Assembly: GCF_011806405.1 (NCBI RefSeq)
Contig: NZ_JAATOW010000014.1
Coordinates: forward strand, 1-64,000
Length of the DNA stretch: 64,000 nucleotides
Source: Pseudooceanicola sp. HF7
Lineage (GTDB): Bacteria; Pseudomonadota; Alphaproteobacteria; Rhodobacterales; Rhodobacteraceae
Direction of reading: 5' to 3'
Shown: positions 5,394 to 44,056 of the stretch, in pieces
How the letters are laid out: each line of letters starts with the position of its first letter
Position numbering within the stretch: the stretch's first letter is position 1
Made by a program: the position numbers and the translations under genes
The notes under the pieces: generated by a model
Told to the model about the DNA's origin: nothing
The model's input: only the letters and a program-made list of their open reading frames with translations
Databases searched by the model: none

Positions 5394-6281
5394 TCAGAAA
5401 TGTTCATACATCCAGACGGCGGCGTTCATCTCTCTCAAAGCCACTTCGCCGTGGTAAAGCAGGCGTGTCAGGGCCTCAGGACCGGCGGCCCCACCGCCCG
5501 CGATCTCGTGAAGCTGCGGCCCCATCCAGTCCCATACCATCTGCACCAGTTCCAGCTGCATCTCGATCTCGAACGAGGGCGGCGCCACGATGCCGTCCCA
5601 TTCATTGCCCGTGCGCAGCTTGTAAAGGCTGCTTTCAAAGAGCGAGACAGTCCGGGCCAGCGCGCGCCTGTCCTCTTGCGGATCAAAGCTGCGGCCGGCC
5701 ATGCAGGCCTCTTTCAGGGCCTTCATGATCAACATCCGCTGGCGCCCCGCAATGTTCAGCGCCGCCGCGATATCGGCAGAGATCAGCCCCTCGCCGTAGG
5801 TGCGTTCCATGATGCCCACGGCCGTGTTCATGTTCTTGAGAACGGCGACATTGCGCAGGTGGATCGCCCGCAGCGCCGGTTCTTCCTGCCCCTCCAGGTA
5901 GCGGTTCACGGCGGCCCCGTAGCCCAGCCAGAGGCGGTCCACGATGGTCAGCGCCTCAAGCACGCCGGTGTTGTCCTCTGGCGCGAGCCCCTGGTCTTCG
6001 CTCCCCTGTCGCAACCCTGTGAGCGTGCGATCGAAGAGGTCCGTGGCGGCGCGCGCCTTGGCTAGGCTCTGGTCCACCAGCACGTCCGTATCGGCCATGC
6101 AGGACAGCATAGCGATCCGCTGGGACAGCATCCGCTGCCGCCCCGCCAGGTTGATCTTTCGCTTCGCCGCATCCTGCGCGATCGTCGCCGTAGCCTGGGA
6201 TGGCGCCGCCAGCCCGCCAGTGGTCAGGGCCAGACAGGCCAGCACTCGGATCGCGAAGTCCGTCACCCACTTGCTTCTCAT
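5394..6281 (-). CDS. Secreted protein with two PilJ-type N-terminal domains
   Basis: The 295-residue protein has an N-terminal hydrophobic segment (about residues 8-32, VLACLALTTGGLAAPSQA) that looks like a signal peptide. It has two copies of the type IV pilus chemoreceptor N-terminal motif, INLAGRQRMLSQRIA near residue 43 and LNIAGRQRMLIMKAL near residue 180. This motif occurs in PilJ and NarX-like sensor domains, but no transmembrane signalling or HAMP domain follows. It may be a free periplasmic ligand-binding protein. I chose the ATG at 6281 because AGGAGG lies 9 nt upstream; an ATG at 6308 has no such site. It is monocistronic between tig and the ABC exporter. Its ligand cannot be read from the sequence. 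Confidence 0.8.
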   Translation of the reverse strand: MRSKWVTDFAIRVLACLALTTGGLAAPSQATATIAQDAAKRKINLAGRQRMLSQRIAMLSCMADTDVLVDQSLAKARAATDLFDRTLTGLRQGSEDQGLAPEDNTGVLEALTIVDRLWLGYGAAVNRYLEGQEEPALRAIHLRNVAVLKNMNTAVGIMERTYGEGLISADIAAALNIAGRQRMLIMKALKEACMAGRSFDPQEDRRALARTVSLFESSLYKLRTGNEWDGIVAPPSFEIEMQLELVQMVWDWMGPQLHEIAGGGAAGPEALTRLLYHGEVALREMNAAVWMYEHF

Positions 6282-6435
6282 CACGGGAAGCCTCCTACGC
6301 TGCGTCATGACGCGTTCAGATGGCCCATGCCGCGTGGAAAAAGGGTTAAGCCCGGCGCCGGAACGCCGGTGTAGCCTGGGCAAAATGATTCAAACCGGAA
6401 ACATCCTAGGCCGCGCGCAGGCCACTGGGCGGCGA

Positions 6436-6455
6436 AAGGGGGCCGAAGCCCCCTG
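6436..6455 (-). terminator. Probable terminator after ABC exporter gene
   Basis: On the minus strand GGGGGC-TTCG-GCCCCC forms a tight stem with a UUCG tetraloop, followed by TTTCG. It begins about 33 bp after the stop of the ABC transporter gene. Confidence 0.55.
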
Positions 6456-6487
6456 CCCGTCAGCTATGCCGCACCCCCGCAACCGTC

Positions 6488-8335
6488 TCACGCGTCCGGC
6501 GCCAGGAAGCCACCGGACTGGCGCTGCCAGAGCCGCGCGTAGATCCCGCCATGGGACAGCAACTCTGCGTGGCTGCCCTGTTCCACGATCCGGCCCTTAT
6601 CCATCACGATCAGCCGATCCATGGCCGCGATGGTCGAAAGCCGGTGCGCGATGGCAATCACCGTCTTGCCCTGCATGAGCACGTCCAGCCGGGACTGGAT
6701 CGCGGCCTCCACCTCGCTATCGAGGGCCGAGGTCGCCTCGTCCAGCACAAGGATCGGCGCATCCTTCAGCGCCACGCGGGCGATCGCGATCCGCTGGCGC
6801 TGCCCGCCGGACAGCTTAACGCCGCGCTCGCCCACATGGGCGTCAAGCCCGCGCCGGCCATGGCTGTCCGACAGATCCGGCACGAAGCTTTCGGCCTCGG
6901 CCATGCGCAGGGCGGCCTGGATCTCTTCCTCGGTGGCGTCGGGGCGGCCATAGGCGATGTTCTCCCGGACCGAGCGATGCAGCAGGGAGCTGTCCTGCGT
7001 GACGACGCCGATGGTCGCACGCAGGCTGTCCTGGGTGACCTTGCCCACGTCCTGCCCGTCGATGGTGATCGCGCCGCCCTCGATGTCATGGAAGCGCAGC
7101 AAGAGGTTGATCAGGGTGGATTTTCCCGCGCCAGACCGCCCCACGAGGCCGACGCGTTCGCCGGGGCGGATATGTAGGCTCAGGTCATCCAGCACCGCCA
7201 TGGGCTGCGCGCCTTCCATGCCCTGGTAGCGGAAGGTCACGTGATCAAAGTGCACCTCTCCGGGGCCCGGCTGCATGGCCCTGGCATCCGGGACGTCACG
7301 CACCTGACGTGGCAACGCCAGGCTGGAGATCCCGTCGCGCACCGTGCCGATGTTCTCGAACAGGGCGGCGAATTCCCACATGATCCAATGGGCCATGTTG
7401 TTGAGCCGCAGCGCCAGCGGAACGGCGATCACCACCGCGCCCACCTCGACCCGGCCCTCGGACCAGAGCCACAGGCCGATCCCCGCGACAGAGGCCACCA
7501 GCCAGACGTTGATCAGGTTCAGCACGATGTCCTGAAGGCTCGACAGGCGCATCTGGCGATAGACCGTCTCAAGAAAGCCATCCATGCCATGGCGCATCCA
7601 GCGTTCTTCCCGGTCCGAATGAGAGAACAGCTTTACCGTCGCGATGTTGGTGTAGCTGTCCACGATCCGCCCGGTCATGGCGCTGCGGGCATCGGCCTGG
7701 TCCTGGGCGACACGGCCCAGACGCGGCACGATCCGCCAGAGCATCGCCGCATAGGCCAGCGCCCAGAGCAGGAAGGGCAGCGCCAGCCGCCAGTCCTGGC
7801 TTGCGGCCAGCACCATGGCCCCCAGGAAATAGATCAGCACGTAGCTGCCCACGTCCATGGCCTTCATCGCCACCTCGCGCACGGCCAGCGCGGTCTGCAT
7901 CAGGCGCTGCGCGATCCGGCCGGCGAATTCATCCTGAAAATACCCCACCGACTGCCGCAGCAGGTAGCGGTGCGCCTGCCAGCGGATCCTTTGCGGGAAG
8001 TTCCCCATCAGGGACTGGTGCAACACCATGGAGGTCACCACGTTCAGCACCGGCAAGGCCACCAGAAGCACCACCGCCATGAAGGCGATGCGGGTCCCCT
8101 GCTCCTGCCAGAAGACCTCTTTCGGGGTGTCGGCCAGGCGGTCGATGAGCTCTCCGAGCCAGCCGAAAAGCGCCACTTCGATCACCGCGATCAGGCCAGA
8201 GCCAAGAGCCAGCAGGACCAGCCAGGGCAGCGCGCCGCGGCTGTAATGCAGCACGAAGCGCACCAGCGAGCCCGGCGGCATCTCCGGCGTCTGTTCCGGA
8301 TAGGGGGCGATACGGCGTTCGAACCAGGCGAACAT
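6488..8335 (-). CDS. ABC transporter, fused permease/ATPase (exporter type)
   Basis: The 615-residue half-transporter has an N-terminal six-helix domain (about residues 25-320) and a C-terminal ATPase domain (about 350-600). The ATPase carries Walker A GLVGRSGAGKSTL, the signature LSGGQRQRIAIARV, Walker B ILVLDEATSALDSE and the switch histidine in IAIAHRLSTI. This is the MsbA/multidrug exporter architecture and acts as a dimer in the inner membrane. The substrate cannot be inferred. I chose the ATG at 8335 (MFAWFERRIAPYPEQTP) because family members start this way in alphaproteobacteria; the longer frame to 8455 gives a non-homologous leader. It is followed by its own terminator and has no obvious operon partner. 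Confidence 0.9.
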   Translation of the reverse strand: MFAWFERRIAPYPEQTPEMPPGSLVRFVLHYSRGALPWLVLLALGSGLIAVIEVALFGWLGELIDRLADTPKEVFWQEQGTRIAFMAVVLLVALPVLNVVTSMVLHQSLMGNFPQRIRWQAHRYLLRQSVGYFQDEFAGRIAQRLMQTALAVREVAMKAMDVGSYVLIYFLGAMVLAASQDWRLALPFLLWALAYAAMLWRIVPRLGRVAQDQADARSAMTGRIVDSYTNIATVKLFSHSDREERWMRHGMDGFLETVYRQMRLSSLQDIVLNLINVWLVASVAGIGLWLWSEGRVEVGAVVIAVPLALRLNNMAHWIMWEFAALFENIGTVRDGISSLALPRQVRDVPDARAMQPGPGEVHFDHVTFRYQGMEGAQPMAVLDDLSLHIRPGERVGLVGRSGAGKSTLINLLLRFHDIEGGAITIDGQDVGKVTQDSLRATIGVVTQDSSLLHRSVRENIAYGRPDATEEEIQAALRMAEAESFVPDLSDSHGRRGLDAHVGERGVKLSGGQRQRIAIARVALKDAPILVLDEATSALDSEVEAAIQSRLDVLMQGKTVIAIAHRLSTIAAMDRLIVMDKGRIVEQGSHAELLSHGGIYARLWQRQSGGFLAPDA

Positions 8336-32785: not shown

Positions 32786-33176
32786 GGGTTGGAAGCAGAC
32801 ATGCGGCGCCGCGCAAGCTCCAACTACCTCGTCCCCCCTCTCGCGGCGCTCGTGGCCCCACAGCGGACCTTCCCCCTGGATCAGAATGCCGCAGCGCGGC
32901 CCGCCAAAGCTGCCTTTCGCCACGATTGCAAACCCCAACGGCGTCGCAAGATCTGCTGCGCTAACGAACCGCGTTTCAGCTGCAACTGCACCCAGGTCTG
33001 CTGACGTTCCCGGTATCTTAGAAAAGACGTTAGTATCGCCGCATGTTCTACAGAACCGTCGGGCCCACCTGACCTGGGCTCAGGTGCTACGTTAATTGCA
33101 CTGTGGCTTTGGTTTGGCATTGGCAGCTGGCTGTTTCATCAACACGCCAAAAGCTGCGGCCTGCAAATCATGATCT
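32786..33176. other. Intergenic region, no gene seen
   Basis: No recognisable frame or RNA in this 390-bp convergent gap. It shows mixed codon positions and no clear terminator. Confidence 0.4.
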
Positions 33177-33461
33177 TCAAATCGGTCGCAGAAGATTTTT
33201 CAACTCCTCCCATACCTGGGCCCTGTCAGTTTGCAACCCGATCAAGTCTCTCTGCAGCATACAATTATCCGCAAGTACGATGTTGAATGCGGTCCAGTAG
33301 CCTTCCGCCCACATGACAGACTGCCTCGCAAGCAAATTATCGTATGTCAGCTCCGAGCGTTCGCTACAAAGTACGGCTGCCGGTCCGGCCCTGGTCACTT
33401 CAGCCGTGGTCTCAGTGCTAAAAACTGCGGCGAAAAGGGCCACCATGGCAAACACCTTCAA
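33177..33461 (-). CDS. Small secreted hypothetical protein
   Basis: A 94-residue frame begins at a TTG (33461) with AGGAGA about 9 nt upstream. It encodes a signal peptide-like start (KVFAMVALFAAVFSTETTA) and a mature part with two Cys (ARQSVMWAEGYWTAFNIVLA between them). The Cys pair could form a disulfide in the periplasm. Family unknown. An in-frame ATG at 33446 is the alternative start. Confidence 0.5.
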   Translation of the reverse strand: MKVFAMVALFAAVFSTETTAEVTRAGPAAVLCSERSELTYDNLLARQSVMWAEGYWTAFNIVLADNCMLQRDLIGLQTDRAQVWEELKNLLRPI

Positions 33462-34035
33462 TGCTGAGATCTCCTATGATGACTGCAAGTGTTATACCGC
33501 AGGGGGCTGCGGAGCCTCAACAGACATTGGCCTGAAAGAAGCCATTGGTTCGCTATGCAGCTTCCTTCAATCTGGGCTCGAAGCGGTCATGCGGCGGCGC
33601 GGCGTGCAGCGTGCGCAGGCTAGCGTGGTCGCATGACGCGCCCGGCCCAAAGCCGATTTTCACCCTTGTCGCAGCGAATGACCGGTCTGTAGCCAAGAAA
33701 GACACAGACTGCTTTCAGCTCTTTGATCCATTTGACTTTGGCTCATCGCGGACCTCCAACTTTCGTGCAGGGCACAGCGCGATGTGGTTTCGTCGTCGTT
33801 TTGCGAATTGCCTTGCATGATTGCGGCCCCCCTCAACGGCGGCGGCTTTGCCCGGAATTCGTCTTCAAGCCGTTCCGAAATCCTATCCGCTTTTGGCTTG
33901 GTCCGTTCTCTGCCAGGGCAGCTCGGTTGGACAAAGGTGCTTGGGACGTTAGGTAGCAGTCAACATCTGCATGCAGACTGCTGTGCTGCCGAACAGGGCG
34001 TCAGTTTAGTGCGCAACCTTCAAGGAGGCCTACTA
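33462..34035. other. Leader region of the ATP-grasp operon
   Basis: 574 bp with no recognisable gene. A copy of the dispersed motif (GCAGCGAATGACCGG, complement of CCGGTCATTCGCTGC) is at 33671-33685. The final bases hold AAGGAGG, 8 nt before the ATP-grasp start. The promoter is probably in the last 200 bp but I cannot place it. Confidence 0.45.
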
Positions 34036-35343
34036 ATGTCTAAGAAAACTGAAACTCCGACAGCCGAGGTTCTTTCGGGCTGGACCGATCCCACGATGGA
34101 TTCCGTGCGCGGAACTGAAACACCGAAAGACCCGAACAAAGGCTATATCGCTCTGCTCGGCTGGAGCGTGAACGCGATCAAGGCCGCCCAGAAATTCGAC
34201 CGCCGCTACGTCGTGGTCGCGCCGGAATGGGCCGCGGACTTCTGCGAGGCCAACAAGATTCCGTTCATACCGTGGGACTTCGCACGGCTCAACGACCGGT
34301 CGGTGGAAATCGCCCAGCGTCTTAAGGACGATGGTGTCGATGTGGCCATTCCGCTGTTCGAGGAGACCGTCGAGTGGTCGGGTGCGATCAACGCCGTTCT
34401 CATGGACAAGCCGCGCATGTATGGCCAATCCATCCTGTTCCGCGACAAGGCCCTGATGAAGCGCCGCGCCCAGCTGGGCGGTATCCGCGTCGGGATCTTC
34501 GAAGAGGCCTACGAGAAGGACGACATCATCCGCTTCATGAAGCGGGTCAACCAGACGCTGCTCAAGCTTGACGGCGACCCGGATGACCCGATCCACGTCA
34601 AGGCCTTCGACAAGGCCGGCTGCCTGGGGCATCGCATGATCCGCGATATCGAGGACATCGACAAGATTCCTGAAGAAGAGTACCCGCTGCTGATGGAAAG
34701 CCATCTGGACGGCTGGGAATTCGCGGTCGAGGCCTGGATCCACGACGGTGAGATAAAGTTTCTCAACATCTCCGAATACGTGACGCTGGGCTACTCCGTC
34801 TTCGTGCCGGCCACCCACGAACTTGAAAGCTGGCGGGACGCGATCACCAAACAGATCGAGAAGCTGATCAAGACGTTCGACATCAAGTTCGGCCAGATCC
34901 ACCCGGAGTACTTCGTTACCTCTGATGGCGAGATGTACTTCGGAGAGGTCGCCTATCGCCCGCCCGGCTTCAAGGCGTTCGAGCTGATCGAGCGCGCCTA
35001 TGGATTCAATCCCTATCAGGCATCCATGCTCGTTTTCGATCCCAAAAGCACCAAGGAGGAGGTCGACGCATTCTTCCCCCGTCCGGTCGAGGATGCCCAG
35101 TGCTACGCCGGCTGTTTTGGTGTCTATCCCCGCCGCCGTGTCGTCAGTAAACTCGAGATGCCCAAGGAAACAACGGAGCACCCGTATTTCGAGTCGCATG
35201 AACTGGTCGCACCGACAGAGGAAACGGTCCCGGACCGATCCGCCTTCGGCACGCATTGGGGGCTGATCTTCTTTGCGGGGGACGATCCGATAAAACTGCG
35301 TGACCTACTCAAGGCGCAGGAAGAACTGGATTTTTACGTGTGA
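34036..35343 (+). CDS. ATP-grasp ligase, uncharacterised
   Basis: The 435-residue protein has an N-terminal pre-ATP-grasp Rossmann-like region (YIALLGWSVNAIKAAQKF; AIPLFEETVEWSGAI) and a central ATP-grasp fold. The likely nucleotide Lys is K189 in PIHVKAFDKAGCLGHRM, and the adenine-side acid is E221 in LMESHLDGWEFAVEAW. The Mg site is EYFVTSDGEMYFGEVAYRPP, with E304 and R308. ATP-grasp enzymes join a carboxylate to an amine or thiol through an acylphosphate. It resembles the carbamoyl-phosphate/BtrJ/PurK-like ligases rather than RimK, but no product can be named. Translation is strongly supported by AAGGAGG at 8 nt. Its stop overlaps the next gene (TGATG), so the two proteins are made together. 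Confidence 0.87.
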   Translation: MSKKTETPTAEVLSGWTDPTMDSVRGTETPKDPNKGYIALLGWSVNAIKAAQKFDRRYVVVAPEWAADFCEANKIPFIPWDFARLNDRSVEIAQRLKDDGVDVAIPLFEETVEWSGAINAVLMDKPRMYGQSILFRDKALMKRRAQLGGIRVGIFEEAYEKDDIIRFMKRVNQTLLKLDGDPDDPIHVKAFDKAGCLGHRMIRDIEDIDKIPEEEYPLLMESHLDGWEFAVEAWIHDGEIKFLNISEYVTLGYSVFVPATHELESWRDAITKQIEKLIKTFDIKFGQIHPEYFVTSDGEMYFGEVAYRPPGFKAFELIERAYGFNPYQASMLVFDPKSTKEEVDAFFPRPVEDAQCYAGCFGVYPRRRVVSKLEMPKETTEHPYFESHELVAPTEETVPDRSAFGTHWGLIFFAGDDPIKLRDLLKAQEELDFYV

Positions 35344-37343
35344 TGAACTCCACAGACGACGCGCAGCATCCTACTGTCGACAGCCGGGCGCAGGACGCCC
35401 GGTTGTCTCATGATCTGGACGCCACGATCGACCAACTCAAGGCAGCAGAGCCGGAGGCCAAGCTGGCCCATCAACAGGCCGTTCTGGCTGATGTCGGGAA
35501 GCTGTTGCAGGTAGACGGAGGGATCGACGTGATCTTTGCCCGTGCCGGCGCAATGGATCTTGCCGGGCTGTTCGCCGGGTCGGACTGGGATGCACCTGAG
35601 GCTCTGCGACCCCAATTCTCAGGCAATACGCTGCTTGCCGATGACCCCGGTCTTGTGGCCCTGGAAATCGCAAGCCTGTTTCGCTTTCTCGCGGTCGCCA
35701 CTGGCGCCATGCGGCACCGCAACCTGCATCAGGATTCCGCAAGGCATTTCCTGACGCAAGTCTTGGCCCTCAACGTTCGCGATATCTTCGGACAGTCGGA
35801 CGAGGCGGCACGGGCCCTTGGCGCGCGCCACGAGCAAAGGCAAGTCATTCTGCGGTTCATCTCAGAGCACATCGGCCTCACGGATGTACTGGGCGTGCTG
35901 GTCACGGAAATCTGGCGTCTTCTGGAGCAGCGCTCCGTTCAGGTCGGCGTGGTCAAGGACATGATCGTGCAGATCGCCATCGCCCTGAACGAAAACGGGA
36001 CCGAGCCGGGCAGCGAGCGTTTGGGGGCGGAGCGTCTCGTCAGCGCCCTCTTTGGCCCCACGGTCGCGTCGTTGGACGATCCGGGAGTGGACGTCTACCT
36101 CGAACGGATCGCGCATTTTGACGAGGCCGCCCTCTCGCGCGAGGCGATGGGCTTTGCCCGGGCGATGCATGACACCGGTCTCGTCTCGGACTACCATGTG
36201 ACATTTCTGCTCTACGTGCTGGACTACAGCGACCGCGCCCTCGTGCCCGAAACGTTGGGCCTCGGGACGACCGGTCTGGACTGCTGGCGCCACTATCGTC
36301 GCCTGATCGAGGACCTGATCCGTGCCGGTGTCACGCTGTCGACACCGCAGGCGATCTATGGCGTGACACTCATGCTGGAACGTGGCGTGCTGCACCATGC
36401 GCCGATGGTCCCGGCGTTGGAGCGCCAGTTGCAGCAAAAAGTGCGCGGCTCTGCCCGCGACCGTATCCGCATGGGCTTTGGCGACCTCGTGTCCCCCGAA
36501 ACGCATGTTCTTGCCGGTGTCCTGCAGATCATCGGCCAGCCTCTGGGTGTGGGCCAGGGAGCGAACCCGACCTGCCAGTCGGCGCGCGCGATTTCCATGT
36601 GGTCCCAGGTTGAGCCCGATTACCTGCTCCATATCATTTACCAAGCCTGCGAATTCGATGCGATTTTGATGCATTTTGAAGGCACCGAGATCAACTCTGC
36701 CAACCTGCCGGTCGGTCTGGCCGGCTTCGGCCCCATCGACGCTGACCCGGTCTCGGTCCTGCTGGTGGCGCATCTGGACAAGATCTATGCCAAGATGGGT
36801 CACCTTTGCATCGGGCGCGACGGCGACCCTCACCGATGGATCAATCCTGAGTTTCATGGGTGGTGGGTGTCGCGCGACTGTGCCGTGGCGGTGGACGTCG
36901 CGACCGGCAATCTTGCGGATTACGATAGTTTCCTGCGCCGCTTCTTTGCCGCGTATCACCCGCACTACAACGGCGGGCGTCCCTTGAGCCATCCGCAGCC
37001 CGCGGGAATCGCTGTGACCGATCCAAACCAGCAATTCATCGGATGGCACGCGATCGCCATTCTGCGCGTGGCAGAGGATCAGGCCGGAGTAATGCGCGTC
37101 TACTTCTACAATCCAAACAACGACAGCGGTCAGGATTGGGGCGGTGGCGTGGTGGTGTCGACCAGCGGGAACGGGGAACGCAATGGCGAAGGCTCCCTTG
37201 AGTTCGGTCATTTCCTGTCCCGGGTCTATTTGTTCCACGACGAACCTTTACGCGGGAACGAGACGATGCAGGATCTTTCCAGCGCCGAGATCAGTCACGT
37301 TAAAGCCCAGGCGACACAAAGCTGGGCTGCTGATCGATCATGA
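35343..37343 (+). CDS. Unknown 666-residue protein, papain-like C-terminal half (inferred)
   Basis: I recognise no family. Residues 1-390 are mostly helical and include VLALNVRDIFGQS and the AIYGVTLMLERGVLHHAPM segment. The C-terminal part shows Gln405-x5-Cys411 in VGQGANPTCQSARAISMW, then His569 in FIGWHAIAILRV and Asn590 in VYFYNPNNDSGQDWGGG. This order and the Gln-to-Cys spacing of six match the oxyanion Gln, nucleophile Cys, His and Asn of papain-fold enzymes. I therefore infer a cysteine peptidase, amidase or transglutaminase-like acyl transferase; this is not a profile hit. It has no signal peptide or membrane helix. The ATG overlaps the ATP-grasp stop by one base. Confidence 0.75.
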   Translation: MNSTDDAQHPTVDSRAQDARLSHDLDATIDQLKAAEPEAKLAHQQAVLADVGKLLQVDGGIDVIFARAGAMDLAGLFAGSDWDAPEALRPQFSGNTLLADDPGLVALEIASLFRFLAVATGAMRHRNLHQDSARHFLTQVLALNVRDIFGQSDEAARALGARHEQRQVILRFISEHIGLTDVLGVLVTEIWRLLEQRSVQVGVVKDMIVQIAIALNENGTEPGSERLGAERLVSALFGPTVASLDDPGVDVYLERIAHFDEAALSREAMGFARAMHDTGLVSDYHVTFLLYVLDYSDRALVPETLGLGTTGLDCWRHYRRLIEDLIRAGVTLSTPQAIYGVTLMLERGVLHHAPMVPALERQLQQKVRGSARDRIRMGFGDLVSPETHVLAGVLQIIGQPLGVGQGANPTCQSARAISMWSQVEPDYLLHIIYQACEFDAILMHFEGTEINSANLPVGLAGFGPIDADPVSVLLVAHLDKIYAKMGHLCIGRDGDPHRWINPEFHGWWVSRDCAVAVDVATGNLADYDSFLRRFFAAYHPHYNGGRPLSHPQPAGIAVTDPNQQFIGWHAIAILRVAEDQAGVMRVYFYNPNNDSGQDWGGGVVVSTSGNGERNGEGSLEFGHFLSRVYLFHDEPLRGNETMQDLSSAEISHVKAQATQSWAADRS

Positions 37344-37549
37344 CACACGATCCGATACAGACCAACCGAGCTTTGGTCGCGGCTGAATGAAGACCCGTGG
37401 CGGATCGGTATCGGCCCGAAGCCAAACTTGGCCAGGATCACCGTTGCCGCAGCGCAGCTTATCCGAACCGAACCGACATGGCACCGCGCAGCAAGGACCA
37501 GGATCCCGAGGTCCGCTGCGCGGGCATTTCTGCCGTTCGGTCTCTTTTT

Positions 37550-38167
37550 TCAGGTAAGCCCCGTCATGACAGCCTTGCGATAGGCCGGGCGTTCAGAGAG
37601 GCGACCATACCATGCCTCAAGCGCAGGATGCTCTGGCCGTTCGATTGACATGCTGAACCAGGCATAGGCGATGCAGCCCAAGGGAATGTCGCCGAACCCG
37701 AACTCAGCGCCTGAAAGCCATTCGCTTTCTGAAAGGGTATCATCCGCAATGCTCATGAGAGTGGCGCACTGCGCGAGACCCCGTTTTACGGCCACATCAT
37801 CACGCTGTTCCGGCGTAGAGCGTATCAGATTCCAGAACAGATCGCGGAAAGGCACTGCGAAAGAAAGCGATGCCCAGTCCATCCACTTGTCGGCCACCGC
37901 CCAGAGGCGCGTGTCCGAAGGTGCAAACGGGGTCGTCCCATATTGTCTTGCAAGATATCTGACGATGGCGTTCGATTCCCACAGCACCAGATCCCCGTCC
38001 TTGAGAGACGGCACCAAGCCGTTTGGGTTGAGCGCGCGAAACTCCTGAGAAGTTACGACACCGAACGCACCTCCAGCAGGGATATGTTCGTACGTCAGTC
38101 CAAGTTCTTCGGCACACCACAGTACCTTGCGGACATTGGTGGAATTGTTGCGGCCCCAGATTTTCAC
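37550..38167 (-). CDS. Glutathione S-transferase family protein
   Basis: The 205-residue protein has a thioredoxin-fold N-terminus (MKIWGRNNSTNVRKVLWCAE) with the likely activating Ser9 or Asn. The cis-Pro segment LNPNGLVPSLKDGDLVLWES contains the glutathione-binding Glu-Ser. The helical C-terminal domain includes SGAEFGFGDIPLGC. It resembles cytosolic bacterial GSTs of the beta/theta-like type. The substrate is unknown. It converges on the preceding operon and is probably monocistronic. Confidence 0.88.
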   Translation of the reverse strand: MKIWGRNNSTNVRKVLWCAEELGLTYEHIPAGGAFGVVTSQEFRALNPNGLVPSLKDGDLVLWESNAIVRYLARQYGTTPFAPSDTRLWAVADKWMDWASLSFAVPFRDLFWNLIRSTPEQRDDVAVKRGLAQCATLMSIADDTLSESEWLSGAEFGFGDIPLGCIAYAWFSMSIERPEHPALEAWYGRLSERPAYRKAVMTGLT

Positions 38168-38424
38168 ACTTCGTCTCCTGTCAGATCACGCCTGCAATAC
38201 CGACTGTCAAATCAGGAGAAAAGGGCTCCACGCGCACCTGCGACAGCGCGGCGGACAGAGCGCAGGTGTCCCCAGGGAACCTGACGGTTCCGGGCCGACC
38301 TCGCCATCCCTTTCAAAGTGCGCAGGCCGGCAAATGGATCTTTACCTCTGCAGTCGTTCATTTCCCGGCCCGTTGCGGCCCAGAGAAACAGGATCCGTCG
38401 CAGCAGACCGCTTGCGGCTGCAAA

Positions 38425-40663: not shown

Positions 40664-43600
40664 ATGACCGCCACCTTTTCAAACGTCCTGCGGTATTGGC
40701 GGACAAGCCTTGCGGATGGTGCACTAGGGGAAGGGACTTTCCGGGCTGCGGATCGAAAGCGTTTGGAGGTCCTGCCGAATGACGCGATCAAAACCGGCTG
40801 CCTCCCCGAGCACCTGGTCCGGGCGATTTTCCGGGGCAAGGATGGCGCCGCAACGGTCTCGGTGCGCTTCTGGCCCCTGGTGACGGCGCGCAGGGTCTCA
40901 CATGCAGCCTCTCGCACCGATGCCATGCCGGAGATTGTCGCCCCCGTCGTGACCGAGGGGGTCCTCGATCGGACTGGCCGGATCGTGCCAACGCGCAACG
41001 CCATCGCCCGCGACCTGCTGACCCCGCTGCCGCGGGGGGCGTTTGCGCTCGGATCAGTCGAGGCCTTGGACGCTTTCCTGACCACGACGCCCCTGCCGGA
41101 CATGACCACCGCGGACGGCTGGCAGGACTATCGCCAGCATTGCCGACAGATGCTCGACGCCCTGGCGCCGGGCTGGCCCGCTGAGCAGAAGGAATACCTG
41201 CCAACCGGCAATGGTTTCATCGAGGCCTCGGAGGGCGCGGGCGCAACGGTGCGCGGCATGATGGACCTCTACGACAGGCTACTCGCCGATGAGCCGGACA
41301 CGCCGCTTCTACGCCAGTTTGCCGCTCCGCGTCCTGAGCGCGCGCCGGATAATGCGGTCGAAAGAGAGTTGGCCCGGCGCCTCGGGCACTCGAACCCCCA
41401 TTTCCCCCTGGCCGAACACCAGAGGCAGGTCCTGGCCTGGCTCGAGGCCTCGCAACCCGGCGAGGTGATCGCGGTGAACGGCCCGCCCGGGACAGGCAAG
41501 ACGACCATGCTGCTCTCCGCCGTGGCCGGACTCTGGGTGAAGGCCGCGCTTGAGGGGGGCGACCCGCCGGTGATCGTGGCGGCCTCCTCGAACAACCAGG
41601 CGGTCACCAATATCATTGACGCCTTCGGCAAGGATTTCGCGACAGGCGAAGGCGTGTTTTCTGGGCGATGGTTGCCAGAGATCAAGAGCTTCGGGATGTT
41701 CCTGCCGTCCCATTCCCGGCGCATGGAAGCCGCGCAACGCTATCAGACAGAGGCCTTCCAGGCAGAATGTGAGACCGTCGCCTACTTCCAGCGCGCCCGT
41801 GTCGCCTGGCTGGAGTCGGCCGGCAGGGCGTTCCCCGAGGCGAAGGGCCAGGACGTCGCCGGGTATGTCGCGGAACTCCGCAACCGCATGACCGCCGAAG
41901 CCAACCGGCTTCGAGAGCTCGACACGGCGCTTACCCATCAAGAAGCCGCCGCCACCGCCCTGCTGTCGGAACTTGGCGATGCGCCGGAGACCGAAACAGC
42001 CCGTCGTGCCGAGGTGGTCAATGTCTGCTTGGAAGAGGCGGAACGACTGGCCGCTTCACGCAGCGCACTGGATCATCACCTGGCCTCGGAGTCCTGGCTA
42101 ACCGCGCTGTTCGGCTTCTTGCCCCCGCTACGGCGCAAGCGCGCCTTGCAGGCCCGTCTGGCCATCGGGGACGGGCTGGACGGGTTGCAAGACATGACCC
42201 GTATCGAGGATATCGAAGCGAGGGTCGCTCAAGCCCTGCGACGTGGGAAGGAGGCCCTCGCCTCCGCCCGTCATTCCCTCGCCCGTGCCGAGGATCTCAG
42301 CCAGCAGGCGGCGACCACCGAACGGGCCTGGCGCGAGCTGGCCGAAGCCTTCGCAGGCGCACAGGACCTTGAAACGCTGGAACGGCAGGCGGATCTCGGC
42401 AGCCGGTTCAATCTCTTCCTCCTAGCGACCCATTACTGGGAAGGGCGCTGGCTGATGGCGATGGAGGCCGATCTCAGCGCCATCACCGCCTCTCATGAAA
42501 AAACCGGACGCACGTCTGTCGAACCCCGATGGCGCCGCCGCATGATGCTGACGCCCTGCGCCGTGGCCACCTTTGCCAGCCTGCCGGGCAAGCTTTCGTG
42601 CAGCCGCTTTCAGGCCGGCTCCTTCGCGAATGAAAGCCTGTACAATTTCATAGACCTGCTGATTGTCGACGAGGCCGGCCAAGTCCTTCCCGAGGTCGCC
42701 GGAGCCTCTTTCGCCCTGGCCAAGCGCGCGCTGGTCATCGGCGACACGCAGCAGATCGAGCCGATCTCTGCGGTGCCCGGCCCTGTCGATATCGGGAACC
42801 TGAAGGACTGCGGGCTGATCGACGGCGAAGCCGTTCCGACGGACCTGGACAGGAGCGGCATCCGCACGAACGGCGGCAGCGCCATGCATCTCGCGCAGCA
42901 GGCCTGCAGGATCGCGCCCTGGCCCGAGCTGGATCGCGGGCTTTACCTATTTGAGCACCGCCGTTGCTTCGACGAGATCATCGGCTTCAGCAACGCCCTG
43001 TGCTACAAAGGTAAGTTGCGCCCGATGCGCGGGCCCGCGCCTGCGGATGCAATCCTGCCCGCGCTTGGGTACCTGCATGTCGAAGGCCGTGCCTTCTCTG
43101 CCGGGGGAAGCCGCGCCAACCCCGCCGAGGCCCGCACCATCGCCGCTTGGCTGGAGGACAACCGGGCACTTCTGGAGGGCCGTTACGGCCTCCCGCTCGA
43201 GCAGCTCGTCGGCGTCGTCACCCCGTTCGGCCAGCAGGTACGCGCCATCCGCGAAGCCTGCAGCGCCCGCCACATCAAGGTCTCCGGGCGCGACAGCATG
43301 ACCATCGGCACGGTACATGCGCTGCAGGGCGCCGAACGGCCCGTCATCATCTTCTCGCCGGTCTATTCTAGGCACGCGGACGGGGGCTTCATCGACGCCT
43401 CTCCCAGCATGCTGAACGTCACCGTGTCTCGGGCTAAGGACAGTTGCCTTGTTTTCGGCGACATGGACCTCCTTGCCACCGCCCGAAGCGGCACGCCGCG
43501 CGCCTTGCTGTTCGAGGTTCTGGCGGCCAATGGCGTGGCCCTGGATTTCGCCATGGAACCGCGCACGGACCTGACCCGAGGCAATACCGGGATCGAGATG

Positions 43601-44056
43601 CTTCAGCACGCGGACGAGCACGATGCCTTCCTGCTAGACGCACTGAAAGGCGAGGGGCGGAAATACATGATCGTCAGCCCGTGGGTCGTTGCCGGGACGA
43701 TCGAGCGGACCGGCCTGCTCGATGCGATGGCCTCGGCCTGCCGGCGCGGAGCAGAGATCGATGTCTTTACCGACCCGCTCCTCAACACTGGGGCGACCGC
43801 GGACGGGAAAACCCAGATTGATGCCGTGGAGCACGCGCTTTCGGCGATCGGCGTCACGGTCCACCGGGTCGCGAAACTGCACAGCAAGATCGTGACCGTT
43901 GACAAGGAGCTTCTCTGCGCCGGCTCTTTCAACTGGCTCAGCGCAGATCGGACTGGCCAGTACGCCCGCCACGAAACCTCCTTCGTCTACCGCGGGCCGC
44001 ACCTCGAAGAAGAGATCAAGATTATCCGCGACGGCCTCGAAAAGCGAGCGAAGTAG
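40664..44056 (+). CDS. SF1 (Upf1/COG1112-like) helicase fused to PLD nuclease, Mokosh type II-like
   Basis: The 1130-residue protein has an N-terminal region of about 230 residues, then an SF1 helicase. Walker A is GPPGTGKTT with Lys279; Walker B is LLIVDEAGQV with Asp669-Glu670. Motif III resembles ALVIGDTQQIEP, and late motifs are TIGTVHALQGAERPVIIFS and LNVTVSRAKD. A long coiled-coil insertion lies at about 380-600. The C-terminal 130 residues contain a PLD motif, His1073-x-Lys1075-x4-Asp1080, in LHSKIVTVDKELLCAGSFNW. One-gene fusions of this helicase type with a PLD nuclease correspond to MkoC of the Mokosh type II anti-phage system. The helicase core is clear; the Mokosh label is inference from architecture. 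There is no neighbouring defence gene. Confidence 0.82.
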   Translation: MTATFSNVLRYWRTSLADGALGEGTFRAADRKRLEVLPNDAIKTGCLPEHLVRAIFRGKDGAATVSVRFWPLVTARRVSHAASRTDAMPEIVAPVVTEGVLDRTGRIVPTRNAIARDLLTPLPRGAFALGSVEALDAFLTTTPLPDMTTADGWQDYRQHCRQMLDALAPGWPAEQKEYLPTGNGFIEASEGAGATVRGMMDLYDRLLADEPDTPLLRQFAAPRPERAPDNAVERELARRLGHSNPHFPLAEHQRQVLAWLEASQPGEVIAVNGPPGTGKTTMLLSAVAGLWVKAALEGGDPPVIVAASSNNQAVTNIIDAFGKDFATGEGVFSGRWLPEIKSFGMFLPSHSRRMEAAQRYQTEAFQAECETVAYFQRARVAWLESAGRAFPEAKGQDVAGYVAELRNRMTAEANRLRELDTALTHQEAAATALLSELGDAPETETARRAEVVNVCLEEAERLAASRSALDHHLASESWLTALFGFLPPLRRKRALQARLAIGDGLDGLQDMTRIEDIEARVAQALRRGKEALASARHSLARAEDLSQQAATTERAWRELAEAFAGAQDLETLERQADLGSRFNLFLLATHYWEGRWLMAMEADLSAITASHEKTGRTSVEPRWRRRMMLTPCAVATFASLPGKLSCSRFQAGSFANESLYNFIDLLIVDEAGQVLPEVAGASFALAKRALVIGDTQQIEPISAVPGPVDIGNLKDCGLIDGEAVPTDLDRSGIRTNGGSAMHLAQQACRIAPWPELDRGLYLFEHRRCFDEIIGFSNALCYKGKLRPMRGPAPADAILPALGYLHVEGRAFSAGGSRANPAEARTIAAWLEDNRALLEGRYGLPLEQLVGVVTPFGQQVRAIREACSARHIKVSGRDSMTIGTVHALQGAERPVIIFSPVYSRHADGGFIDASPSMLNVTVSRAKDSCLVFGDMDLLATARSGTPRALLFEVLAANGVALDFAMEPRTDLTRGNTGIEMLQHADEHDAFLLDALKGEGRKYMIVSPWVVAGTIERTGLLDAMASACRRGAEIDVFTDPLLNTGATADGKTQIDAVEHALSAIGVTVHRVAKLHSKIVTVDKELLCAGSFNWLSADRTGQYARHETSFVYRGPHLEEEIKIIRDGLEKRAK

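What the first reader, a model, noticed from the sequence alone, without database searches (positions are those of the whole stretch)
34036..37343. Uncharacterised two-gene operon: ATP-grasp ligase coupled to a papain-like 666-residue protein
The two genes overlap by one base and share a strong ribosome-binding site at the front. The second protein has no family I recognise but carries Gln405-x5-Cys411, His569 and Asn590 in the order and with the Gln-Cys spacing of papain-fold enzymes. A ligase that activates carboxylates with ATP beside a Cys acyltransferase/peptidase suggests a pathway that makes or processes a peptide or amide. I know of other ATP-grasp plus cysteine-peptidase pairings (glutathionylspermidine synthetase/amidase), but none with this layout.
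Basis: partly seen in the sequence, partly recalled or inferred. Interest (0 to 1): 0.85.

Follow-up and report, generated by a model that had tools for sequence, protein, structure and literature searches.

The report
Ligase-cysteine-enzyme pair of ectoine-gene bacteria
Two bacterial genes that go together, one for an ATP-using ligase and one for a probable cysteine enzyme of a family with no name, were found almost only in bacteria that also carry the gene for the salt-protective solute ectoine, so they may make or process a small amide in the cell's response to salt.

Summary
Window 34036-35343 encodes a 435-residue ATP-grasp protein and 35343-37343 a 666-residue protein, overlapping by one base. 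Gln405, Cys411, His569 and Asn590 are invariant in 104 of 104 copies (window included; paralogues down to about 44% identity). In 398 Pseudomonadota genomes the two genes mark the same 11. The ligase fold is closest to L-amino-acid ligases (RizA, BL00235, BacD). The second protein matches no Pfam or NCBIfam family. Its C-terminal part has papain's residue order and secondary-structure context but no significant fold or profile match, so "papain-like" is likely, not shown.

New: bearers of the pair nearly all carry ectoine synthase (ectC): 12 of 12 bearers in the window's own family against 92 of 295 in that family, and 43 of 44 bearers tested in all. A control gene shows no such bias (6 of 12 against 121 of 295). 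An ectC lies beside the pair in one genome, an ectC remnant in another. A zinc peptidase (73-81% identical) lies near it in five loci.

Best reading: a two-enzyme amide-making and amide-processing module of osmoadaptation. The product is unknown, and salt and ectoine are not separated as the real correlate.

The parts
34022..34028 (+). ribosome-binding site AAGGAGG before the ligase gene
   Evidence: sequence
34036..35343 (+). ATP-grasp ligase, 435 aa, subtype I (with an N-terminal extension before KDPNKGY)
   Evidence: RizA 4wd3, Foldseek E 5.3e-22; 14 of 98 rows have the extension, window included
35343..37343 (+). 666-aa protein with no Pfam or NCBIfam family: all-helical N-terminal ~380 residues, mixed C-terminal domain with Q405/C411/H569/N590
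36555..36557 (+). Gln405 codon, proposed oxyanion-hole residue
   Evidence: position; invariant 104 of 104; role by analogy
36573..36575 (+). Cys411 codon, proposed nucleophile, only invariant Cys
   Evidence: invariant 104 of 104; role by analogy
37047..37049 (+). His569 codon, proposed general base
   Evidence: invariant 104 of 104; role by analogy
37110..37112 (+). Asn590 codon, proposed third catalytic residue
   Evidence: invariant 104 of 104; role by analogy

Best explanation
A two-enzyme module that makes and processes a small amide or peptide during adaptation to salt. Shown: the two genes co-occur and are mostly adjacent, keep their presumed catalytic residues, have no single orthologous neighbour in most loci, and 43 of 44 bearers tested carry ectC. 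Inferred: the ATP-grasp protein phosphorylates the carboxylate of an amino acid or similar acid with ATP and joins it to an amine, as L-amino-acid ligases do. Inferred: the 666-residue protein uses Cys411-His569-Asn590, with Gln405, in a papain-type mechanism to transfer or cleave that amide, so that the product is remodelled or its level is set, while the helical N-terminal part binds the substrate or a partner. Which acid and which amine is unknown.
For: Co-occurrence: ORF2 in 11 of 398 Pseudomonadota genomes (profile) and ORF1 at 72% identity or more in the same 11, also where unlinked. Ligase fold nearest L-amino-acid ligases (the same names weakly by sequence). Invariant Q/C/H/N in papain order, with papain's Gln-Cys spacing and secondary-structure context. 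ectC in 12 of 12 bearers of the window's family against 92 of 295 (90 over the cut-off) in that family (hypergeometric about 5e-7); control PF00124 6 of 12 against 121 of 295. ectC in 29 of 30 further bearers against 17 of 100 in a Pseudomonadota sample that itself holds 5 bearers. An ectC without ectA or ectB in the fetched stretch lies 561 bases from the ligase in L003; an ectC 3' remnant lies just before it in L047/L157. Orthologous Peptidase_Mx near the pair in L003, L038, L053, L058, L151.
Against: No substrate, product or salt phenotype is known. 80 of the 92 ectC carriers in the window's family lack the pair, so it is not needed for ectoine. ectC was found beside the pair in only 2 of 107 loci (flanks of varying length), one of them a remnant. 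Related genomes are not independent trials, and the Pseudomonadota background is not matched to the 30 bearers, some of which are from other phyla. The papain fold is not significant in fold or profile searches. One bearer (G681, a 1.2-Mb assembly) shows no ectC. Copy numbers do not always match: three ORF2 to two ligases in G363 and G463, one ORF2 to two ligases in G344 and G597. ATP-grasp enzymes of near fold also make carbamates or carboxy-phosphate (PurK, biotin carboxylase), so the bond made may not be an amino-acid amide.
Confidence: 0.4

Rival explanations
1. Reversible protein tagging: the ATP-grasp protein adds an amino acid or peptide to a protein, and the 666-residue protein removes or recognises it, as in RimK/RimB and perhaps the Rlo operon of Pseudomonas.
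For: The Rlo operon pairs an ATP-grasp protein with a protease and acts in osmotic stress (PMC12239564, passages). The helical N-terminal part of ORF2 gives weak matches to repeat scaffolds such as beta-catenin (none significant). ORF2 outnumbers the ligase in G363 and G463.
Against: The fold of ORF1 is nearest to small-molecule L-amino-acid ligases. No orthologous target gene was seen beside the pair in most loci. In G344 and G597 the ligases outnumber ORF2.
Confidence: 0.22
2. The pair does a general marine or halophile task that has nothing to do with ectoine; ectC is only a marker of high salt.
For: Many bearers named belong to genera known from marine or saline places (recalled; not checked one by one). 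ectC is itself a salt marker. ectC adjacency is rare (2 of 107 loci).
Against: An ectC, or its remnant, next to the pair in two phyla; 43 of 44 bearers tested have ectC.
Confidence: 0.27
3. A peptide natural-product or conflict module (graspetide-like, toxin or defence).
For: ATP-grasp plus cysteine protease is a natural-product pattern (recalled). The pair moves between lineages.
Against: No match in PADLOC or PHROGs at E <= 0.01, and a pattern scan of viral contigs gave no relative. No orthologous transporter was identified; ABC-transporter-like genes recur in 13 locus groups, but as one large superfamily cluster that was not resolved. Genes under 80 aa were not compared.
Confidence: 0.08

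Closest known systems
L-amino-acid ligases RizA (4wd3), BL00235 (3vot), BacD/YwfE (3vmm, 3wo1, 3wnz)
   Same: ATP-grasp fold, nearest structural matches of ORF1 (Foldseek E 5e-22 to 3e-17)
   Different: 13-17% identity; the E304-x-A306-x-R308 element has Ala where Asn is usual in these ligases (recalled); paired with ORF2
Glutathionylspermidine synthetase/amidase
   Same: ATP-dependent ligase coupled to a cysteine amidase that acts on the same bond (recalled)
   Different: There one fused protein with CHAP and GSP_synth domains (recalled); neither model is among the matches here
Rlo operon (RloA/B/C) and RimB/RimK of Pseudomonas
   Same: ATP-grasp protein plus peptidase; Rlo acts in osmotic stress (PMC12239564, passages)
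   Different: Aspartic peptidases, a membrane transglutaminase-like RloB, hypo-osmotic stress; no RimK model among the matches of ORF1
Papain-family bacterial proteins (PF00112)
   Same: Gln-x5-Cys, later His and Asn, same order
   Different: No profile similarity; His-Asn distance 21 against 16; ~380-residue helical part in front
Solitary EctC proteins
   Same: An ectC without ectAB in the fetched stretch lies beside the pair in L003, and an ectC remnant in L047; their function is called unresolved in PMC5924519 (passages)
   Different: Cupin cyclase; not found beside the pair in the window or in the other loci examined

Membership tests
ATP-grasp superfamily (ORF1) | ATP-grasp fold | tested here: met
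   Foldseek, 477 PDB chains at E <= 0.001; the 50 listed are ATP-grasp enzymes by name (superfamily recalled). Pfam ATP-grasp_4 at 26.9 bits, just under the cut-off 27
ATP-grasp superfamily (ORF1) | conserved nucleotide and metal residues | tested here: met
   K177, E221, E291, E304, R308 invariant in 98 of 98 rows; their roles are recalled by analogy, and A306 stands where Asn is usual (recalled)
L-amino-acid ligase (BacD/RizA type) | closest fold | tested here: met
   six of the first seven listed PDB chains are L-amino-acid ligases (ranks 1, 2, 4-7); rank 3 is 4dim
L-amino-acid ligase (BacD/RizA type) | curated family score | tested here: not met
   best NCBIfam match PRK07206, itself called hypothetical protein, at 25.2 bits, cut-off 302
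L-amino-acid ligase (BacD/RizA type) | forms a dipeptide from free amino acids | not testable with these tools
   needs an assay
Papain-like (clan CA) cysteine enzymes (ORF2) | Gln, Cys, His, Asn in order and invariant | tested here: met
   104 of 104 rows
Papain-like (clan CA) cysteine enzymes (ORF2) | papain fold | tested here: inconclusive
   model pLDDT 85.9 with Cys at a helix start and His in a strand, residues 407-409 under 50; papain-type chains at E 0.14 to 1.8, none significant, other folds ranked as high or higher
Papain-like (clan CA) cysteine enzymes (ORF2) | sequence-profile similarity | tested here: not met
   hhalign probability 0.7% in the wrong region against a thin three-sequence PF00112 profile (unrelated ORF1 profile 0.3%); no PF00112 match in ORF2 or 56 relatives; no PDB sequence match
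Glutathionylspermidine synthetase/amidase | CHAP and GSP_synth domains in one protein | tested here: not met
   neither among the Pfam matches
Graspetide cluster | short precursor peptide gene | not tested
   neighbours under 80 aa were not compared

The most novel reading that the evidence does not exclude
The pair is an unrecognised branch of ectoine metabolism. The ATP-grasp enzyme activates ectoine, N-gamma-acetyl-diaminobutyrate or a related acid and joins it to an amine, the cysteine enzyme remodels or cleaves the amide, and the EctC and the zinc peptidase found beside it in some genomes belong to the same route, yielding a hitherto unknown ectoine-derived solute or signal.
Probability: 0.17. 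Interest if true: 0.85.

Novelty: new variant of a known kind. Interest (0 to 1): 0.6.

Why it matters
ORF2 is a strongly conserved enzyme-like family, spread over four phyla, without a Pfam or NCBIfam match, tied to a ligase and to ectC carriers. A knockout and a metabolite comparison in one ectoine-making laboratory strain would show whether such bacteria make an amide that is not on the present list of solutes. It may also give a genetic handle on lone EctC proteins, whose function PMC5924519 calls unresolved (passages).

Tried and rejected
Considered and rejected: defence or phage origin (nothing). Known RNA in front: no Rfam match in 33000-38400 at E <= 0.1. Promoter and terminator scan uninformative. 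Nalpha-carbamoyl-glutamine amide, a solute whose genes I do not know of, came to mind; nothing ties it to the pair (listing only).

Neighbourhood. The clustering gave Halomonas synteny, large-superfamily clusters that were not resolved into orthologues (for example ABC-transporter-like in 13 locus groups, LysR-like regulators), a 90-aa protein without Pfam match in 8 alphaproteobacterial loci, Peptidase_Mx in 5 loci, and a histone-deacetylase-like gene in L046, L126 and L154 with weaker matches in three Halomonas loci. ectC came from a separate search. Peptidase_Mx as an obligate third part: rejected. It is present at 73% or more in 18 of 46 bearers (19 if G694, in two contig-end pieces of 78% and 72%, is counted) against 0 of 33 non-bearers, whose best match is 54% or less; but all 33 non-bearers are of the window's family, and within that family it is 1 of 12 against 0 of 33, so the contrast is mostly between lineages (L003 was asked for but is not held).

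Literature. No relevant paper, by title and listing. led to the Rlo paper (PMC12239564, passages), to the ectoine review (PMC5924519, passages). In PMC10318531 (papain-like classification) only a reference mentioned ATP-grasp (passage). Iyer et al. 2009 on ATP-grasp amidoligases is not held, so whether it lists this pair is not known here.

Limits. Family and genus names of G genomes are not told; 'Rhodobacteraceae' for the window's family is my inference from named relatives. The 30 genomes were picked by me for diversity among bearers. Of the 11 bearers, 9 were tested for ectC, all positive; G597 and G674 were not. Of the 80 loci, the genomes of 24 were tested. Alignments used parts: A1 43 rows and A2 57 rows, of 86 and 91 available with the window. 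L018 and L092 were left out of A2 because my chosen start lay before a stop codon, L091 with them. Rows were thinned before the trees: 74 of 98 and 79 of 104; the ORF2 tree is of the quick kind without bootstrap.
Full report
What is there. Two genes on the + strand, 34036-35343 and 35343-37343, overlap by one base, with AAGGAGG in front of the first. Each is single-copy in this genome.

First protein. Pfam ATP-grasp_4 matches at 26.9 bits against a cut-off of 27. The predicted structure (pLDDT 79.8) is an ATP-grasp fold. Six of the seven best PDB chains are L-amino-acid ligases (RizA, BL00235, BacD/YwfE); the third is 4dim, deposited as phosphoribosylglycinamide synthetase; PurK-type and biotin-carboxylase chains follow. 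K177, E221, E291, E304, A306, R308 and G311 are invariant in 98 of 98 rows.

Second protein. No NCBIfam match and no Pfam match above chance. In 57 members of the family only scattered weak Pfam matches appear, none in more than three members. No PDB sequence match. The model (pLDDT 85.9) has an all-helical part of about 380 residues and a mixed C-terminal domain. Q405, C411, H569 and N590 are invariant in 104 of 104 rows (103 distinct, window included), among them paralogues at 44-46% identity, and C411 is the only invariant Cys of five. Of 69 invariant positions, 49 lie in residues 381-666. Cys at a helix start, His in a strand and Asn after a strand is the papain arrangement (recalled), though residues 407-409 have pLDDT under 50. 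Fold searches list papain-type chains without significance in two libraries: staphopain 8oig E 0.49 and 1cv8 E 0.95; Lausannevirus papain-like peptidase E 0.14, a Marseillevirus papain-family protein E 0.91 and a Tupanvirus cathepsin E 1.8. Most other listed PDB matches are helical-repeat proteins, and they rank first. A profile comparison with three papain-family proteins failed (that profile is thin). The papain assignment is therefore likely but unproven.

Linkage. A scan of the GTDB species set found 569 stretches that encode relatives; the best 80 loci were kept. Of 104 ORF2 copies examined, 88 have the ligase in front on the same strand within 300 bases, 3 behind it, and 3 divergent within 300 bases; one more is divergent at 948 bases. 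The rest are contig-cut, deleted or unlinked (see the observation check). In 398 Pseudomonadota genomes, ORF2 and ORF1 mark the same 11 genomes in 7 genera. In the window's family ORF2 is in 12 of 295 genomes. In the genomes of L042 and L059, where this ORF2 copy is unlinked, the ligase sits elsewhere beside a second ORF2 paralogue. Copy numbers vary: three ORF2 to two or three ligases in three genomes of genus g400, and one ORF2 to two ligases in G344 and G597.

Two ligase subtypes. 14 of 98 ligases carry an N-terminal extension, 9 of them from outside the window's lineage. In the thinned tree 13 of them form one clade with support 100/100. The window's ligase is in this clade, but its ORF2 sits inside the alphaproteobacterial part of the ORF2 tree, next to rows whose ligase is of the other subtype, such as L005 and L006 (quick tree). 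So in the ancestor of the window, Sagittula marina, Pseudooceanicola marinus and Oceanibium the ligase was probably replaced in place by a foreign one (inference from discordant trees). The subtypes would then be interchangeable, which argues that ORF1 and ORF2 meet through a shared metabolite rather than a finely fitted complex (inference).

The ectoine link. All 12 bearers of the window's family have ectC against 92 of 295 in the family, 90 over the cut-off (hypergeometric about 5e-7). The control, the photosynthetic reaction-centre family PF00124, is in 6 of 12 bearers and 121 of 295. Of 30 further bearers, picked for diversity outside that family, 29 have ectC; the miss is a 1.2-Mb assembly. 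A Pseudomonadota sample gives 17 of 100, of which 5 are bearers. With G344 and G378 from that sample, 43 of 44 distinct bearers tested have ectC. In L003 an ectC (PF06339, 193 bits) is transcribed away from the ligase 561 bases upstream, next to a zinc peptidase; no ectA or ectB is in that 12-kb stretch, and the rest of that genome is not held. In the Desulfobacteraceae assembly an 84-base ectC 3' end, 85% identical to that genome's own ectC, lies just upstream of the ligase; that ectC too has no ectA or ectB in the 17 kb fetched. No other of the 107 loci had an ectC in its flanks. The window genome has an ectABC-ask operon on another contig (named by eye and by the ectC search). These facts do not separate ectoine from high salt, and most ectC carriers in the family lack the pair.

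Companions. A Peptidase_Mx protein (PF15887) lies within 4 kb of the pair or its ligase in L003, L038 (about 140 bases after ORF2, same strand), L053, L058 and L151; the other four are 73-81% identical to the L038 copy. In genome searches this subfamily occurs in 18 of 46 bearers and 0 of 33 non-bearers at 73% or more, but the contrast is mainly between lineages. A histone-deacetylase-like protein abuts ORF2 in L126 and lies within about 3 kb of the ligase in L046 and L154.

Mechanism. Shown: the two genes, their residues, their joint presence and the ectC association. Inferred: acyl-phosphate formation and amide ligation by ORF1; thiol-dependent transfer or hydrolysis of that amide by ORF2. 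The distribution among ectC carriers and the lack of one fixed partner gene fit a short route from common metabolites to a solute or a signal. Parallels are ligase-peptidase pairs such as glutathionylspermidine synthetase/amidase (recalled) and the Rlo operon, an ATP-grasp and peptidase system that governs osmotic tolerance in Pseudomonas (PMC12239564, passages). This pair differs from both in its domains.

Verdict. A real, conserved, unnamed enzyme pair with a new and testable tie to ectC carriers; that tie was not found in the papers searched (and the other searches named under tried and rejected). It is a new variant of the ligase-plus-cysteine-enzyme kind. Confidence is moderate for the general role and low for the substrate.

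Noticed in passing
L003 1922-2317 (-) and L157 8861-8961: ectC without ectAB in the fetched stretch beside the pair in Oceanibium; an 84-base 3' remnant of ectC just upstream of the ligase in a Desulfobacteraceae assembly whose other ectC (L158 8772-9161) has no ectAB within 17 kb.
   Followed up: partly
window 34036-35343 against 35343-37343: The ligase gene is of foreign subtype I while its operon partner groups with alphaproteobacterial relatives: probable in-place replacement of one gene of an operon.
   Followed up: yes
L038 8126-9151 (+), L003 748-1722 (-), L053 6317-7306 (-), L058 9122-10111 (-), L151 4054-5013 (+): Conserved Peptidase_Mx protein near the pair in alpha- and gammaproteobacteria.
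   Followed up: partly
L020 about 5669-7542: In Roseovarius lutimaris the start of the ligase runs into the later part of ORF2: a deletion across the pair.
   Followed up: no
L151 5235-7375: Genes that look like TrkA and TrkH potassium uptake (by eye, no family search) lie beside a subtype I ligase.
   Followed up: no
L150 7163-7756 and L180 2369-3079: Similar proteins that look like nucleoside deaminases (by eye) lie near the pair in two genomes.
   Followed up: no
genomes G363, G427, G463 (genus g400): Three ORF2 paralogues per genome with two or three ligases; some paralogues differ at positions 408 or 415 but keep the four proposed catalytic residues.
   Followed up: partly
L016 184-453 (+) and seven other alphaproteobacterial loci: A 90-residue protein without a Pfam match recurs near the pair in eight loci.
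   Followed up: no
window 40664-44056: 1130-residue protein that looks like a helicase with a C-terminal phospholipase-D-type nuclease motif (by eye, no search).
   Followed up: no
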